In this document: piece by piece, positions 10,858 to 16,132 of the stretch | Position numbering within the stretch: the first letter of the stretch is position 1 | Layout of the letters: every line of letters begins with the position of its first letter | Assembly: GCA_934359185.1 (NCBI GenBank) | Contig: CAKRLE010000013.1 | Span: 1 to 64,000 of the forward strand | DNA: 64,000 nt | Direction: 5' to 3' | Origin: an uncultured Lachnospira sp. | Lineage (GTDB): Bacteria; Bacillota; Clostridia; Lachnospirales; Lachnospiraceae | Position numbers and translations under genes: made by a program | Notes under the pieces: model-generated | What the model was told of the DNA's origin: nothing | Database searches by the model: none | What the model saw: only the letters and a program-made list of their open reading frames with translations

Positions 10858-13020
10858 CTACTGCAGATAGAAGTAAAATGTGCTATTCGTTCCTGAGTAG
10901 TAATCAGATCTGGAGCCGTTTCCATATATTCCTAAATCAATCTGATAGAAAGGCTTTGATGGATCAATTGTTATGCTGTTATCAAAATTATTAAGTTTAT
11001 CCTTTACCTCTTCCAGCATGCCTGACACTGATGTCATATCTTTATCATCACCATGATATGCCTTTTTGCTTTTTGACTCACCATCTTCACCATATATAGA
11101 ATCTGAGAACAAAACATCCTGTGTTGCATTAGGAATATCAATTCTATATATATTCAGCTGTACAGAATCAGCTATAATCTGTGTGAGAGAATCATTATCT
11201 ATTGAATTGATTACTATGCTTCTGGCTTTTTCAAAGTTAACTCCCTCCACCATAAGGGATTTGCTCTTTTCACTAACCATCTTCATATACATTGATGTTG
11301 TCTTGGGAATAGCTGATGTAAGAGGCACTCTTATATTCCACTCAACGCCATCTTCTATGAATTTAACTCTTAATTTATCACATACACCAGATGCCTGTCT
11401 TGCTGCCATATATGTCGTAAAGTCTGTATTTCTAATCTCTTCCTTAGCTGATTCGTATATCTTCTTAGCCTCTTTCTGGTCAAGCGGAACATCATTATTA
11501 AATCCGATATTTACTCCATTAGAGTCTGGCAGGCTAAGATATATATTCTGATACTCCTCAGACTTGCTAAGACTGCTAATTATGTCATTATACTGTTTTG
11601 AATTAACAAGGATTTTTCTATGTCTTCCAAGCAATCCATCCTTAAAATATATATCTATATCATATACCCTGACATTCTTTGAATTGTACATGTCAATTCT
11701 GCTCTTTCCCTTACAGTTATCGTATGCGTCAACAAACTTCTTAACAGATTCCTTATCATCTATTTTAAAAGAGAACAGCTTATTATTGTAATAGTCATCA
11801 TATCCTGTATAATCACTGTTAAATCTGTAATCACCAGATTCAATCTTCACATATGATATTTTATCCACATCAGGATTATATGCTTTCATTCTGACAGTAC
11901 CTATCGCAATAATACCAGTAAATACAATCGAGCATACAAAAGCTGCTGCAAATGATATGGCTGTTTTTTTCAATAACAGTGTCTTGTCACCTGTGAGCAG
12001 TTCATATACAAGCATCGCAATGAATGCCCCGATAATAACAAGTCCTACAGACATAATTGTACTTACGTTGGATATATCATTAATTGAATTTACTATTGCC
12101 ATCACAGCAAAATCGAGAATAACAAAACCAATAACAGTTCTAATTGCAAACTGTGCTTTGTTACCTACTGTCGCCTTACCTGCTATCTCACTCTTTCTTC
12201 TGTTAAAGAAATAAAAACCAGCAGCAGTATATATAACAGCAAGCACCAGTGTATAAATCATGCTGGATCTGCTAGTCAGTGTTCCTGTCAGTCCACCTGT
12301 TGTATAGGTCCTTGCTCCAAGTCCCATAACATCACCAAATACAACATTTACAAGCATATTTCTCATTTTTCCAATCACAGGGACTGTAACCGTGTGCGAT
12401 GCAAAGTCAAACATACTTTGAACTGTAAAAATCATCAACTCGCTTAACACCGCTGGAAGAAACATGATTATTCCTGAAAGACATATATTACTGATAAGAT
12501 TACCAGTAACTGAACATGCAAGCACAATAGATGCTCCACATATCAGATTACATATTATTATTCCCACAACAGTCCATACAAGCGATGAGACAGAATATAC
12601 AAAATACTCATGATATATAGCCATTGGCACTGCAACCGCCACAAATACAGCAGCGAACATAATTAACTGCCATGCTAACACTGCCGCAAGCTTTGTAAGA
12701 TACATGTTAAGCCTTGTGTATGGAAGTGAATTATAGAAATCCGAGCTGTTTCTCTTATTATTATAATTAAATGCCATAAGCATAAGTATAGGCGTTACAA
12801 CAACAAATGTAGCTATTAACACAGTAAAATCAGATATAGTAACTGATGTCGAAATACTGCTTCCTGTCTGCCTGAAATAATTCTGATTTGCTGAGCCTTC
12901 TGATATTAACGTAATAGCCGGTATTACTGCCATTATGACAGTGGCAAGTATTCCTATAATCTTTAACTGCAGGAAATTATTAATAAACAGCGGTATGCTA
13001 AACACCTTCTTATTATTCAT
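10858..13020 (-). CDS. ABC transporter permease (ABC-2 type) with long extracytoplasmic domain
   Basis: The protein has 720 residues. About ten hydrophobic segments lie in residues 15-365 (for example GILATVIMAVIPAITLI, LIATFVVVTPILMLMAF and VIGFVILDFAVMAIV). The marker SSDFYNSLPYTR near 90-101 is seen in YtrC/ABC-2 permeases. One more membrane segment (AAAFVCSIVFTGIIAIG) near residue 355-375 is followed by about 330 hydrophilic residues, probably outside the membrane. It starts within the last codons of the ATPase gene (8-base overlap), so the two are translationally coupled. It is the last gene of a gntR-ATPase-permease operon of the YtrABC type. In Bacillus, such operons respond to lipid II-targeting antibiotics; that role here is inference. 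Confidence 0.85.
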   Translation of the reverse strand: MNNKKVFSIPLFINNFLQLKIIGILATVIMAVIPAITLISEGSANQNYFRQTGSSISTSVTISDFTVLIATFVVVTPILMLMAFNYNNKRNSSDFYNSLPYTRLNMYLTKLAAVLAWQLIMFAAVFVAVAVPMAIYHEYFVYSVSSLVWTVVGIIICNLICGASIVLACSVTGNLISNICLSGIIMFLPAVLSELMIFTVQSMFDFASHTVTVPVIGKMRNMLVNVVFGDVMGLGARTYTTGGLTGTLTSRSSMIYTLVLAVIYTAAGFYFFNRRKSEIAGKATVGNKAQFAIRTVIGFVILDFAVMAIVNSINDISNVSTIMSVGLVIIGAFIAMLVYELLTGDKTLLLKKTAISFAAAFVCSIVFTGIIAIGTVRMKAYNPDVDKISYVKIESGDYRFNSDYTGYDDYYNNKLFSFKIDDKESVKKFVDAYDNCKGKSRIDMYNSKNVRVYDIDIYFKDGLLGRHRKILVNSKQYNDIISSLSKSEEYQNIYLSLPDSNGVNIGFNNDVPLDQKEAKKIYESAKEEIRNTDFTTYMAARQASGVCDKLRVKFIEDGVEWNIRVPLTSAIPKTTSMYMKMVSEKSKSLMVEGVNFEKARSIVINSIDNDSLTQIIADSVQLNIYRIDIPNATQDVLFSDSIYGEDGESKSKKAYHGDDKDMTSVSGMLEEVKDKLNNFDNSITIDPSKPFYQIDLGIYGNGSRSDYYSGTNSTFYFYLQ

Positions 13021-13927
13021 CTTCCTTCACCTCCATCTGCTTATCAAATTCATATCCTAACGCTTCCATCTCATATGTGAATACCTCTTCTAATGTAAGT
13101 GGCAACACATCTAATACAATAGGATTCATAGCTCTGAATCTTTCAATCATCTGCTCTCTGTCACCATTAACTATCATGTTGGCAACTGAACCCATCTGAC
13201 GGTATCTTGTTATATTCATATCCCAGAATTTACTCTCATTAAATTCATGGTCAAATGCAACCTGAACCTTAAACTGTGTAGTCTTCATCTCCAATACATC
13301 ACTATCAAGCACAAGTCCGCCCTTGTGAAGCAGTGCAAGATGATCGCATATATCCTCAAGCTCTCTCAAAGAATGTGATGTAACTATAATTGTTGAATTC
13401 TTCTCTGCCACATCATCACATATAAGCTTCTTTACAAGATTTCTCATAACCGGGTCAAGTCCGTCAAATGTCTCATCAAAGAACATATACTTTGCTCTTG
13501 TTGAAAGTGTGAGAATAATCGCCGCCTGTCTTTTCATTCCCTTAGAGAAATTCGCTATATTCTTATCAGGGTCAAGCTTGAATATTCCTGTAAGCTCCTT
13601 AAATCTTTCCATATCAAAGCTGTCAATAAGCCTGGCATACATCTTCGCCATCTTATTCATGCTCGCACCTGGAAGAAAATATAAATCATCTGCAACAAAT
13701 GCTATATTACTTTTAGCCACTGGATTCTCATATACTGGTTCATCATCAATATACGCCAGCCCCGAATCAGGCTTATATATTCCGGCAAGTACTCTTAAAA
13801 ATGTAGATTTACCAGCACCATTTGATCCTACAAGACCATATACACAGCCATCCAGGATATTGCAGCTGACTTCATCCAGCGCCACAAATGAATCAAACTT
13901 CTTAGTTATGCCCGCCGCTCTAATCAT
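13013..13927 (-). CDS. ABC transporter ATP-binding protein (YtrB-like)
   Basis: The protein has 304 residues. Walker A is GLVGSNGAGKST near residue 33-44, the signature is FSKGMKRQAA (with K at the position after SxG) near 128, Walker B is YMFFDETFDGLDP near 148, and the switch is VTSHSLRELEDICDH. The C-terminal ~85 residues are an accessory domain usual in YtrB/CcmA-like exporters. It overlaps gntR upstream by 8 bases and the permease downstream by 8 bases. It powers transport by that permease. Confidence 0.92.
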   Translation of the reverse strand: MIRAAGITKKFDSFVALDEVSCNILDGCVYGLVGSNGAGKSTFLRVLAGIYKPDSGLAYIDDEPVYENPVAKSNIAFVADDLYFLPGASMNKMAKMYARLIDSFDMERFKELTGIFKLDPDKNIANFSKGMKRQAAIILTLSTRAKYMFFDETFDGLDPVMRNLVKKLICDDVAEKNSTIIVTSHSLRELEDICDHLALLHKGGLVLDSDVLEMKTTQFKVQVAFDHEFNESKFWDMNITRYRQMGSVANMIVNGDREQMIERFRAMNPIVLDVLPLTLEEVFTYEMEALGYEFDKQMEVKEDE

Positions 13928-14330
13928 TATCTTTCACCTCTGCTCCATTATATTTTTTATTAAAACATCCATCAACTATATCAATCAGCTCCTGCTTCGA
14001 TACGCCAGCTATAACAAGCCCTGAAACCATCTCCCTGAACTCTGACAGCTTATCCTTGGCTAATACACTTGCTTTCTCCACAGCATCATCAGCAATAAAC
14101 GCTCCTTTACCTGGCACCGTGATTATAACCCCTCTTCTTTCAAGCTCCGAATATGCTTTCTGAATTGTATTCGGGTTAATCGCAAGCTGCATAGAAAGCC
14201 CTCTCACTGACGGCATCTTAGTTCCCGAAGCCATAATCTTCATAAGAACCTTCTGCTCAACCTGATTAATAACCTGTTCATAAACCGGCACTCGAGACAT
14301 CAAGTCAATTACAAACATGTTATCACTCAT
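13920..14330 (-). CDS. GntR-family regulator, YtrA subfamily (second copy)
   Basis: The protein has 136 residues. The winged helix is at 10-80: VPVYEQVINQVEQKVLM, KMPSVRGLSMQLAINPNTIQKAY and RRGVIITVPGKGAFIA. A short dimer tail follows (SKQELIDIVDGCFNKK). GGAGGGAAT gives a good ribosome site. It is the first gene of the operon with the ATPase and permease and probably represses it through the inverted repeat at 14360-14386. Confidence 0.92.
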   Translation of the reverse strand: MSDNMFVIDLMSRVPVYEQVINQVEQKVLMKIMASGTKMPSVRGLSMQLAINPNTIQKAYSELERRGVIITVPGKGAFIADDAVEKASVLAKDKLSEFREMVSGLVIAGVSKQELIDIVDGCFNKKYNGAEVKDND

Positions 14331-14386: not shown

Positions 14387-14489
14387 GATATATATAAAAT
14401 ATCCCCTCCTGCCATTTTTGTCAAGAGGGAATTAAAAATTTTTATTACATAAAGCAAATCTCAAACCAGACGAGGTTTCGTTAGAAACC
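14387..14489. other. AT-rich gap with a small hairpin, no gene seen
   Basis: This stretch joins the gntR promoter region to the large palindrome. It holds a short hairpin, GGTTTC-GTTA-GAAACC at 14474-14489, directly beside the palindrome, and an A/T block at 14430-14455. I find no open frame or RNA gene. Confidence 0.5.
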
Positions 14490-14808
14490 ATTAATTGCGT
14501 ATTTGCGCGCCCTGTGTGCGAACAGCCCCACCGCCTCACAGTCTGCAGCTTCCCTGTCTGCGTATGCTTACTTCACCTGGCGTTCTGTCGTGTTGGTCTT
14601 AGGCTGGTGTTAGACAAATGCCAATCAGAATGCTAAACGTCCAAGCGAAGCGCGTTTTTAGCATTCTGATTAAACAGGCATTGTCGTGCCAGCCTTAGAG
14701 CAACTAGACAGGTTAGACCCCGTGAAGTAAGCATACGCAGACAGGGAAGCTGCAGACTGTGAGGCGGTGGGGCTGTTTGCGCACAGAGCGCGCAAATGCG
14801 CAATTAAT
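14490..14808. repeat. 319-bp near-perfect palindrome (long hairpin element)
   Basis: The outer arms 14490-14576 and 14722-14808 are inverted copies, 83 of 87 bases identical, with the last 56 (14521-14576 and 14722-14777) perfect. All four differences are transitions. Inside, a weakly paired part (matches such as AGGCTGG and GACAA) leads to a second perfect stem, AATCAGAATGCTAAA (14623-14637) with its reverse complement (14657-14671), around a 19-base loop. Composition is clearly richer in G+C than the flanks. The right end contains the TAA stop of the neighbouring CmpB-type gene. No open frame of note lies inside. Possibilities: a repeated mobile palindrome, a structured RNA, or a fold-back at a transcript end. 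Confidence 0.9.
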
Positions 14809-16132
14809 CTATCGTGGTGGCATTAGGATATATCCTCTTCATCCTCGCATCATCATAATGCACATCCATCCACTCCTGCCAGCTCTCTGCCGCAGGCACT
14901 TCCTTTCCACGCTCATCATATCTAATAAGTGCCATGCACGAAACCACAATATTACAACACATAAATGCAACAAGTGCCCATGTCAGCACCTTTCCAAACT
15001 TCAGAGGAATCTTTTCAATCCACGAAGAAACCGTAGGGTACAACAATTTAAACCATACAACAGCAGCTATTCCCCAGAAGAAACAGTACAGCAGATTAAT
15101 CCTTCCTCCAAGATTATACTTAAATCCACTGTAATCCCAGAAAACCTTTCCAAATACTATCTCTGTAAATACAGAGCACAGATATTCATATGCACCACCA
15201 AGTAATGTTCCTACCCAGAATAAGAACCAGTCACTCTTATCCTTGTATCTATAAAGAAGTGCTGTTACAATCGCAATCGCAAGTCCCCACACAATACTGA
15301 ATGGTCCCCATACAACACTGCTTCTGCTCATCCACACGCCTGCCGTTATGCGGCAGAATATAGTCTCTGTTATATCACCTAAAAATGCTCCTATAAAAAA
15401 CAGCATGATTATTTTATAAATATCACATCCACTTGCAAATACATTTTTATCTCTCTCCTGTACTTTGACAGCAGATGCCTCTGGATATGCCCTGTCTATT
15501 CTATGGGTTACTTTGTTATAAATCCAGTTGCCAAGCCTTTTACTGAATTTATCTATATTGTCATTGGCATTCTCTAGCCACTCCGCATTCTTTTGCTGTC
15601 CTGCATTTCTTAAATTCTTTTTTTCTTTTCCCTTAACCAGCACAAATGATGCTGCAATATCAACTGAAAGAAGTGCAATAAGTGCTATAAGTATAATGTG
15701 CATGACAAGTTTTGGCATATTGGAATATACGCTAAGAAACATATCATTGCCATATCTTACAGCCAGAAATCCAAGTGAACCTTTCACTAACGATACTGCA
15801 GCACAGATATATCCGTCAAAATTCCATTTGAAACTGCCATAATCCCACCACCGCTCATGGAAATATCTCTCAATCAGATGTCCAGCACCCCACTCAATAA
15901 CTGCCGCATATATAACAGCAAATACAAACAGCGCAATCCCAGTCATTCCCTTAAGACCTATTGACATAAGGATTGCACCGATTCCATATAAAACACAGAA
16001 TGGTCCATTCACAAGACCTCTGTTGACAAATCTTTTGTGTTTCGTTGCCCCTACACACACTTCATAAATCCATCCAAGAAATGAATATATGAAAAAGAGC
16101 CACAATAACTGATATACACTATAATTACCCAT
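14804..16132 (-). CDS. Membrane protein with two tandem CmpB-type (PF06541-like) domains
   Basis: The protein has 442 residues. The sequence is an internal duplication: half one (about 8-160) has FFIYSFLGWIYEVCVG, VNGPFCVLYGIG and WWDYGSFKWNFDGYI. Half two (about 235-400) has FFIGAFLGDITETIFC, VWGPFSIVWGLA and FWDYSGFKYNLGGRI. Each half has four or so membrane spans, and a charged linker (KGKEKKNLRNAGQQKN) joins them. Such proteins are annotated as putative ABC transporter permeases, but no ATPase accompanies this one, so transport is unproven. A strong AGAGGAGAT ribosome site is present. The stop codon lies in the end of the 319-bp palindrome. Confidence 0.82.
   Translation of the reverse strand: MGNYSVYQLLWLFFIYSFLGWIYEVCVGATKHKRFVNRGLVNGPFCVLYGIGAILMSIGLKGMTGIALFVFAVIYAAVIEWGAGHLIERYFHERWWDYGSFKWNFDGYICAAVSLVKGSLGFLAVRYGNDMFLSVYSNMPKLVMHIILIALIALLSVDIAASFVLVKGKEKKNLRNAGQQKNAEWLENANDNIDKFSKRLGNWIYNKVTHRIDRAYPEASAVKVQERDKNVFASGCDIYKIIMLFFIGAFLGDITETIFCRITAGVWMSRSSVVWGPFSIVWGLAIAIVTALLYRYKDKSDWFLFWVGTLLGGAYEYLCSVFTEIVFGKVFWDYSGFKYNLGGRINLLYCFFWGIAAVVWFKLLYPTVSSWIEKIPLKFGKVLTWALVAFMCCNIVVSCMALIRYDERGKEVPAAESWQEWMDVHYDDARMKRIYPNATTID

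What the first reader, a model, noticed from the sequence alone, without database searches (positions are those of the whole stretch)
14490..14808. 319-bp near-perfect palindrome with a nested second stem, in no known feature class
The 87-base outer arms (14490-14576 and 14722-14808) match at 83 positions, with 56 in a row perfect, and a separate 15-bp perfect stem sits at the centre. All four differences are transitions. In RNA copied from the plus strand, three of them become G-U pairs (86 of 87 paired); in the minus-strand RNA only one does. That bias hints at a structured plus-strand RNA, although the flanking genes are read from the minus strand. The composition differs from the AT-rich surroundings, and the element supplies the stop codon of the neighbouring gene. 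It may be a non-autonomous mobile palindrome, a large regulatory RNA, or a recombination-prone hairpin.
Basis: partly seen in the sequence, partly recalled or inferred. Interest (0 to 1): 0.7.

Follow-up and report, generated by a model that had tools for sequence, protein, structure and literature searches.

The report
Giant hairpin repeats with shared loop
The 319-base palindrome is one copy of an apparently undescribed family of very long DNA hairpins scattered between genes in some gut Lachnospiraceae (including Eubacterium eligens), whose arms differ from copy to copy while a 19-base tip loop stays nearly the same, and some copies appear to have spread as mirror images into neighbouring genes.

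Summary
The palindrome is real and far beyond chance. It folds as one hairpin with a 15-bp apical stem, a 5-nt bulge and a 19-nt loop, CGTCCAAGCGAAGCGCGTT. That loop, not the arms, is the signature: it recurs at the tips of long hairpins in nine other Lachnospiraceae genomes (35 copies in G207, 11 in [Eubacterium] eligens ATCC 27750, 3-17 in five, one each in two). Of 103 loop hits examined, 101 carry an apical stem; of 8 single hits in other genomes, none. Stems differ between copies but stay complementary (98% of cells paired, 15 of 16 pairs changed on both sides). Elements sit mostly 3' of genes in a preferred orientation (60:15). In about half of 30 copies mirror symmetry runs into unique flanking DNA, sometimes coding. 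No Rfam family matches, and a Y1 transposase does not track with it. Best reading: a REP/ERIC-like mobile hairpin recognised by its loop, arms kept paired by template switching; the enzyme is unknown.

The parts
14490..14808 (+). whole hairpin element (orientation: strand that carries the loop as CGTCCAAGCG...)
   Evidence: inverted repeats and folds; absent from orthologous loci L086 and L087
14490..14576 (+). left outer arm
   Evidence: 83 of 87 complementary to 14722-14808
14722..14808 (-). right outer arm
14577..14622 (+). imperfect middle stem, 5' side; ATGCC 14618-14622 pairs with GGCAT 14677-14681 below the bulge
   Evidence: folds
14623..14637 (+). apical stem, 5' side (15 bp)
   Evidence: covariation of this stem across 31 copies
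14638..14656 (+). conserved 19-nt apical loop CGTCCAAGCGAAGCGCGTT, the family signature
   Evidence: identical in two G207 copies, variants with one or a few changes in the others; only match in the window
14645..14651 (+). GCGAAGC mini-hairpin motif inside the loop
   Evidence: compensatory G-C to A-T in 4 of 31 rows and G-T in 1
14657..14671 (+). apical stem, 3' side
14672..14676 (+). 3'-side bulge AAACA (counterparts GTAATA, AATAA, AATA, TACTA in other copies)
14677..14721 (+). imperfect middle stem, 3' side
14490..14495 (.). ATTAAT, self-complementary; probable target sequence or duplication
   Evidence: the orthologous site L086 reads GATTAATATTAAT
14803..14808 (.). second ATTAAT; holds the stop codon TAA (14804-14806) of the neighbouring gene
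14804..16132 (-). flanking gene that reads into the element (Pfam ABC_trans_CmpB)
13920..14330 (-). flanking gene on the other side (GntR-family regulator); a promoter-like site (consensus match only) lies at 14424-14396

Best explanation
The palindrome is one copy of a dispersed, non-autonomous hairpin repeat family of Lachnospiraceae. Shown: copies share a 19-nt loop on a roughly 14-15 bp stem with a 3'-side bulge; stems and arms differ between copies but stay complementary; copies lie mostly 3' of genes in a preferred orientation; some related genomes lack them; in several copies mirror symmetry continues into unique flanking DNA. Inferred: copies spread when the sequence is single-stranded and folded, through a trans-acting enzyme that reads the loop and bulge, and not through terminal repeats. 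Also inferred: once in place, the hairpin (with a very stable GCGNAGC tip) makes the replicating strand fold back or switch template, so that one arm is copied into the other. This keeps the arms paired while they drift and lets the palindrome grow outward, even into genes.
For: Same loop at hairpin tips: 101 of 103 loop hits (best hit per place; window and nine further genomes) carry an apical stem of at least 9 of 14 Watson-Crick pairs, against 0 of 8 single hits in other genomes and 3.3% of random flanks, and 0 of 17 exact 16-nt loop hits in viral contigs. Counts are 35 in G207 and 7 in G312 with 0 in the reversed-pattern control, and 11, 17, 16, 11 and 3 in five Lachnospira genomes with 1 control hit in 22 genomes. 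Patchy: G207 is the only one of 9 genomes in its genus and of 325 in an order sample, both centred on it; 9 of 397 family genomes, of which 4 are hairpins. Covariation: 98.0% of 496 cells paired, 143 two-sided changes, 0 of 500 shuffles as high on any measure. Sites without element: window locus in G023 and G020, L293 locus in G006, G013, G021 and G022. Mirror copying: own-arm score 18.4 against 10.3 for mismatched copies 260-340 nt out, where copies no longer resemble each other; inverted copies reaching into a 5-FTHF cyclo-ligase gene (L210) and a Cys/Met PLP-enzyme gene (L241). Two copies lie in a complete isolate record, so a MAG artefact is excluded for the family. Template switching with hairpin-loop priming is a described idea (PMC8794818, abstract and Discussion read); GCGAAGC melts at 78 deg C as a DNA mini-hairpin and GNA loops behave alike (PMC4686876, passages).
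Against: No mobility enzyme was found; Y1 transposase (PF01797) is in 5 of 9 bearing and 11 of 25 non-bearing genomes and was not found in G207 and G312. The L293 'empty' site could be a deletion between short TATACA repeats, because G006 and G013 keep an outer hairpin there; similar losses are seen at L326/L287/L313. The window element shares only the apical hairpin with other subfamilies; beyond it no clear similarity is detectable. Between orthologous copies stems are mostly conserved (median identity 1.00 and 0.93), so fast stem turnover is not general. Within 120 nt of the apex a copy's own arms are no more alike than the same arm of different copies (0.857 and 0.820 against left-left 0.859 and 0.819), so arm-to-arm copying shows mainly further out. 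The window's own genome is not held, so copy number in that species is unknown.
Confidence: 0.55

Rival explanations
1. A structured RNA element: the hairpin is the 3' untranslated region or terminator of the gene that reads into it (minus strand in the window), and the loop is a protein- or RNA-binding site that stabilises, ends or processes the transcript. Spread is a side effect.
For: Right-hand gene reads into the element in 60 of 75 cases, tandem pairs 24:7; where it does, its end lies a median 138 nt from the apex (75 copies); strong covariation with a conserved loop is typical of structured RNA.
Against: No G-U bias towards either strand overall (229:243); no Rfam match at gathering in the window or at E<=1 in 7 loci with copies; palindromes of 500-700 bp and mirror copying into coding sequence are not needed for such a role; no transcript data.
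Confidence: 0.25
2. A classical MITE: a deletion derivative of an insertion sequence moved by a DDE transposase acting on terminal inverted repeats, here the 87-bp arms.
For: Palindrome with flanking ATTAAT copies; multi-copy, intergenic, patchy.
Against: The ends are not conserved between copies even inside one genome; the conserved part is the tip. A terminal-repeat pattern gave hits in 26 of 397 family genomes and 23 viral contigs, none with this element; one (L154) has another roughly 150-nt hairpin next to the hit, without the loop sequence looked for, not followed.
Confidence: 0.1
3. An attC-like recombination site: folded single-strand DNA site placed 3' of genes and read by a tyrosine recombinase.
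For: Structure kept while sequence varies, bulge, 3'-of-gene orientation.
Against: No cassette arrays seen: the neighbours looked at are ordinary-looking genes; conserved part is the apex and the outer ends are copy-specific. No integrase was looked for.
Confidence: 0.04
4. A one-off inverted duplication or an assembly artefact with no family.
For: No DNA match for the whole element in phages, plasmids or 22 Lachnospira genomes.
Against: Loop and architecture recur in nine other genomes, including E. eligens.
Confidence: 0.01

Closest known systems
REP / REPIN elements with RAYT (TnpA-REP) transposases
   Same: dispersed intergenic palindromes with hairpin structure, non-autonomous (movement as folded single-strand DNA: recalled and abstracts in the listing)
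   Different: REPs are described as 20-40 bp with a GTAG or CGTC tag at one end (PMC3733652, passages read; 'firmicutes' and 'clostridi' occur 0 times in its main text); here the element is about 200-700 bp, the conserved motif is the apical loop, and Y1 transposase does not track with it
ERIC and other prokaryotic MITEs
   Same: multi-copy, intergenic or 3'-UTR, copy number differing between strains (PMC10969869, passages read); imperfect palindromes (recalled)
   Different: those families are recognised by conserved sequence and terminal repeats (recalled); here ends and stems differ from copy to copy and only the loop is shared by all
Integron attC sites
   Same: conserved folded structure with variable stem sequence, bulge, location 3' of genes (attC features recalled; papers seen as search listing only)
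   Different: no cassette arrays seen; conserved apex and not conserved ends
Template-switch hairpins (Monttinen and Loytynoja 2022, PMC8794818)
   Same: inverted copying keeps or creates stems; hairpin-loop priming proposed (abstract and Discussion read)
   Different: there short RNA stems; here dispersed hairpins hundreds of bp long that share one loop and extend into genes

Membership tests
REP/RAYT | short (20-40 bp) palindrome tagged by GTAG or CGTC at one foot | tested here: not met
   319 bp in the window, other copies mostly 200-700 bp; conserved block is the loop; definition from PMC3733652
REP/RAYT | Y1 (HUH) transposase in the genome | tested here: not met
   PF01797 in 5 of 9 bearing and 11 of 25 non-bearing genomes; none found in G207 (35 copies) or G312; completeness of these assemblies is not told
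MITE of a DDE transposase | conserved terminal inverted repeats shared by copies | tested here: not met
   outer arms copy-specific in G207; terminal-repeat pattern gave no copy of this element
MITE of a DDE transposase | target site duplication | tested here: inconclusive
   ATTAAT at both ends in the window is self-complementary; L293/G006 share TATACA, which deletion could also explain
ERIC | ERIC consensus sequence | not tested
   no ERIC sequence was compared; named by analogy only
Integron attC | site inside a gene-cassette array with an integrase | tested here: inconclusive
   copies looked at stand beside ordinary-looking genes; integrase not searched
Known structured RNA (Rfam 15) | covariance-model match | tested here: not met
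   0 matches in the window at gathering; 0 at E<=1 in 7 loci with copies
This loop-hairpin family | 19-nt loop on a complementary apical stem with a 3' bulge | tested here: met
This loop-hairpin family, Lachnospira/G207 subfamily | conserved core blocks beyond the apical hairpin | tested here: not met
   window against Lachnospira: 15 of 300 (5' side) and 34 of 300 (3' side) shuffles as good; other comparisons no better

The most novel reading that the evidence does not exclude
The conserved tip is a mobile self-priming cassette: a stable mini-hairpin that, wherever it lands 3' of a gene, makes DNA synthesis fold back, so that it turns the flank into a mirror image and builds and extends palindromes of hundreds of bases from local DNA, including coding ends. 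It would be a selfish element whose only conserved part is a primer-like loop.
Probability: 0.2. Interest if true: 0.85.

Novelty: new variant of a known kind. Interest (0 to 1): 0.62.

Why it matters
Long palindromes are expected to be unstable in bacteria (recalled), yet some Lachnospiraceae carry dozens. A family with one near-fixed loop and varying arms gives natural replicates for asking how hairpins stay paired over evolution and whether template switching can rewrite gene ends. It also points to a hairpin-recognising mobility system to look for in a human gut species with a complete genome, E. eligens. In the literature searches made (open-licence papers only) no paper describing it was seen.

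Tried and rejected
Whole-element DNA searches: phages, plasmids, 22 Lachnospira genomes at E<=1e-3 and 397 family genomes at E<=0.01 (4 genomes with weak hits). The informative ones were to the loop in G207 (E 0.003 and 0.005), so the genus search with the stricter limit was blind to it and was repeated by pattern. The other weak hits (L081, L082, L084) lie in what looks like coding sequence without the hairpin and were set aside as chance.

Terminal-repeat idea: patterns from the ends gave 23 viral contigs and hits in 26 of 397 genomes, none a copy of this element. L164 has a 30-nt palindrome at the hit and L154 another roughly 150-nt hairpin beside it, neither with the loop motifs looked for; idea dropped, L154 not followed. 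Loop pattern in viral contigs: 17 exact hits to 16 nt, none with an apical stem (stems 5-8 of 14), 0 for the longer form, 0 for two arm patterns.

Plus-strand RNA from G-U bias: not supported. Hypervariable stems between orthologs: I first thought so from L308/L325, L274/L269 and L287/L326, but over 28 ortholog pairs stems are mostly conserved; dropped as a general claim.

IS200/RAYT partner: not supported. Copies with different stem registers were not forced into one model; pair counts use 31 rows with one register, leaving out all G207 and G312 copies, GTTG or extra-T variants and most orthologous duplicates. One search left out 5 of 35 G207 copies cut by contig ends; one search tested 6 chosen copies; one search used 90 copies, dropping those whose best arm alignment did not start near the apex (only 3 of 7 G312 copies remained) and 2 G207 copies not given. 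One search counts one copy per ortholog group and leaves out L171. Distances between convergent genes: right side nearer in 22 of 34, sign test p = 0.12, Wilcoxon p = 0.0035; not pressed. The right-distance list typed lacked 4 of 75 values; one search repeats it with all 75 (median 138 in both). No covariance model was built. The output was cut, so part of those folds was not seen; searches cover the same loci.

Full report
Observation. The sequence at 14490-14808 is as described: 87-nt arms matching at 83 positions, four transitions, 56 perfect pairs in a row, and an inner perfect 15-bp stem. Both RNA strands and the + DNA strand fold into one hairpin with z-scores of about -24 to -27 and none of 100 shuffles as stable. 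Self-comparison shows the middle pairs too, at about 80% over the whole length. No copy of the element lies elsewhere in the window and no Rfam family matches the window at gathering scores.

Where it sits. The window is from an unheld genome related to Lachnospira: its formyltetrahydrofolate synthetase-like protein is 81% identical to a Lachnospira MAG (the protein name is my reading of the sequence). The element lies between an ABC_trans_CmpB gene (14804-16132, minus) and a GntR/ABC gene pair (13013-14330, minus). Two genomes of the same genus (G023, G020) have the same gene order without the element. In one of them (L086) the gene ends GAT TAA exactly as in the window, so the stop codon is probably ancestral, and ATTAAT is the likely target. 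The window also has about 40 extra bases with a small hairpin (14474-14489) beside the element.

The family. A whole-element search of 397 family genomes gave only weak matches in 4; the informative ones were to the loop, at two places in genome G207. Both places turned out to be long hairpins with unrelated stems and the same loop. Searching the loop (up to 2 mismatches) gave 9 of 397 family genomes. Arm analysis showed true hairpins in four (G207, G312, G332, G099) and not in five. G207 has 35 and G312 7 loops with up to one mismatch to a shorter motif. G207 is the only one of 9 genomes of its genus and of 325 in an order sample with a match; both searches were centred on it. In Lachnospira 8 of 22 genomes gave hits: G006 11, G013 17, G018 16, G021 11, G022 3, and single hits in three others that are not hairpins. 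Two of its copies lie between annotated genes of that complete record. In all, 101 of 103 examined loops (window, G207 35, G312 7, G332 1, G099 1, Lachnospira 58) have at least 9 of 14 stem pairs; the exceptions are L213 (8) and L318 (5). Of the 8 single hits elsewhere none does; random flanks reach it in 3.3%, and none of 17 viral-contig loop hits does.

Anatomy. The shared structure is a 14-15 bp apical stem, a loop close to CGTYCAAGCGNAGCGCGTT, and a 4-6 nt bulge on the 3' side (one G312 copy, L209, does not fold better than shuffles as a short ssDNA piece). On 31 copies including the window, 98.0% of 496 cells pair (67.4% in shuffles, at most 46% when slid), 15 of 16 pairs change on both sides, and the outer G-C pair of the inner GCGAAGC becomes A-T in four rows and G-T in one. 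As DNA, GCGAAGC is described as an extraordinarily stable mini-hairpin melting at 78 deg C, and GNA loops as alike (PMC4686876, passages); the search motifs required most of this sequence, so its conservation is partly built in. Lachnospira and G207 copies, and the 5' side of G099, share further core sequence; G312, G332 and the window share only the apical hairpin. So the window element is a member by loop and architecture, not by overall sequence.

Position and orientation. With simple longest-ORF gene calls and one copy per ortholog group, the gene on the loop's 3' side reads into the element in 60 of 75 cases (p = 1.6e-7), the gene on the other side in 44 of 75 (p = 0.17); tandem pairs are 24:7 (p = 0.003), convergent pairs 34, divergent 7 (all copies). 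In the window too the right-hand gene reads in. For two E. eligens copies the ORF calls agree with the annotation. G332's copy lies among phage tail genes.

Arms are copied. In 30 of the 35 G207 copies, the zone 260-340 nt from the apex no longer resembles other copies (left-left score 10.8, background), yet a copy's own two arms still match (18.4 against 10.3); the own arm is the best match in 16 of 30; beyond 340 nt there is no signal. Inside the shared zone own arms are more alike than opposite arms of different copies (0.857, 0.820, 0.872, 0.826 against 0.792, 0.769, 0.806, 0.774), but in the inner 120 nt not more than the same arm of different copies (left-left 0.859, 0.819). In L210 the right arm runs through the C-terminal codons of a 5-FTHF cyclo-ligase gene (Pfam match to residue 178 of 190) with a mirror copy on the left. 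In L241 the left arm lies in the end of a Cys/Met PLP-enzyme gene. Of six chosen copies five gave 0 of 1000 and one 3 of 1000 shuffles as good. The simplest cause is template switching or fold-back synthesis at the hairpin, a process proposed for RNA stems (PMC8794818, abstract and Discussion). Between 28 pairs of orthologous copies stems are mostly conserved (medians 1.00 and 0.93), so stem replacement is occasional.

Mobility. For: many copies, patchy presence, loci without the element. At L293 (G018), of 8 genomes searched, four (G006, G013, G021, G022) show both flanks close together without it. Against: G006 could have lost it by deletion between TATACA repeats, and G006 and G013 keep an outer hairpin. 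Elsewhere half-elements, apex losses and deletions are seen. A Y1 transposase does not track with the family. The enzyme is unknown.

RNA or DNA. Over 90 copies isolated mismatches are 229 G.T and 243 A.C (p = 0.55), though G207 (66:114) and the five Lachnospira genomes (159:122) lean opposite ways. This does not favour an RNA of either strand overall and fits pairing kept at the DNA level, but it does not exclude an RNA role.

Verdict. A chance repeat is excluded. It is a structurally defined family of dispersed hairpins, nearest in kind to REP/ERIC elements but recognised by its loop. Shown: family, covariation, orientation, copy-specific mirror symmetry. Inferred: movement as folded DNA, template switching as the cause. 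Literature was searched without finding it; the library holds open-licence papers only.

Noticed in passing
window 14474-14489: Small hairpin GGTTTC-GTTA-GAAACC directly beside the element, in about 40 bases absent from the orthologous intergenic regions L086 and L087.
   Followed up: partly
L326 1380-2120; L323 1250-2300: Two elements of the family lie about 360 and 520 bp apart in opposite orientation; relatives appear to keep one, a half, or a copy without its apex.
   Followed up: partly
L171: In genome G332 a copy lies between phage tail genes (tail sheath, tail tube), so the family reaches prophage or tail-like gene clusters.
   Followed up: partly
L241: Ends of two convergent genes (a Cys/Met PLP enzyme and an ORF without Pfam match) share short DNA patches as inverted repeats while both frames stay open, which suggests mirror copying inside coding sequence.
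   Followed up: partly
L286 about 1278-1365: A single arm of an element ends abruptly at the inner loop, a half-element remnant.
   Followed up: no
L085 about 1786-1862: A second, separate imperfect palindrome (78 aligned nt) lies about 160 bases from the G207 element; it carries GATTTATGACGTATCAT, similar to the family's 5' block.
   Followed up: no
L154 about 1537-1688 (genome G041): Another roughly 150-nt imperfect hairpin in a Lachnospiraceae genome, beside a terminal-repeat pattern hit; the loop motifs looked for are absent, so possibly a different hairpin family.
   Followed up: no
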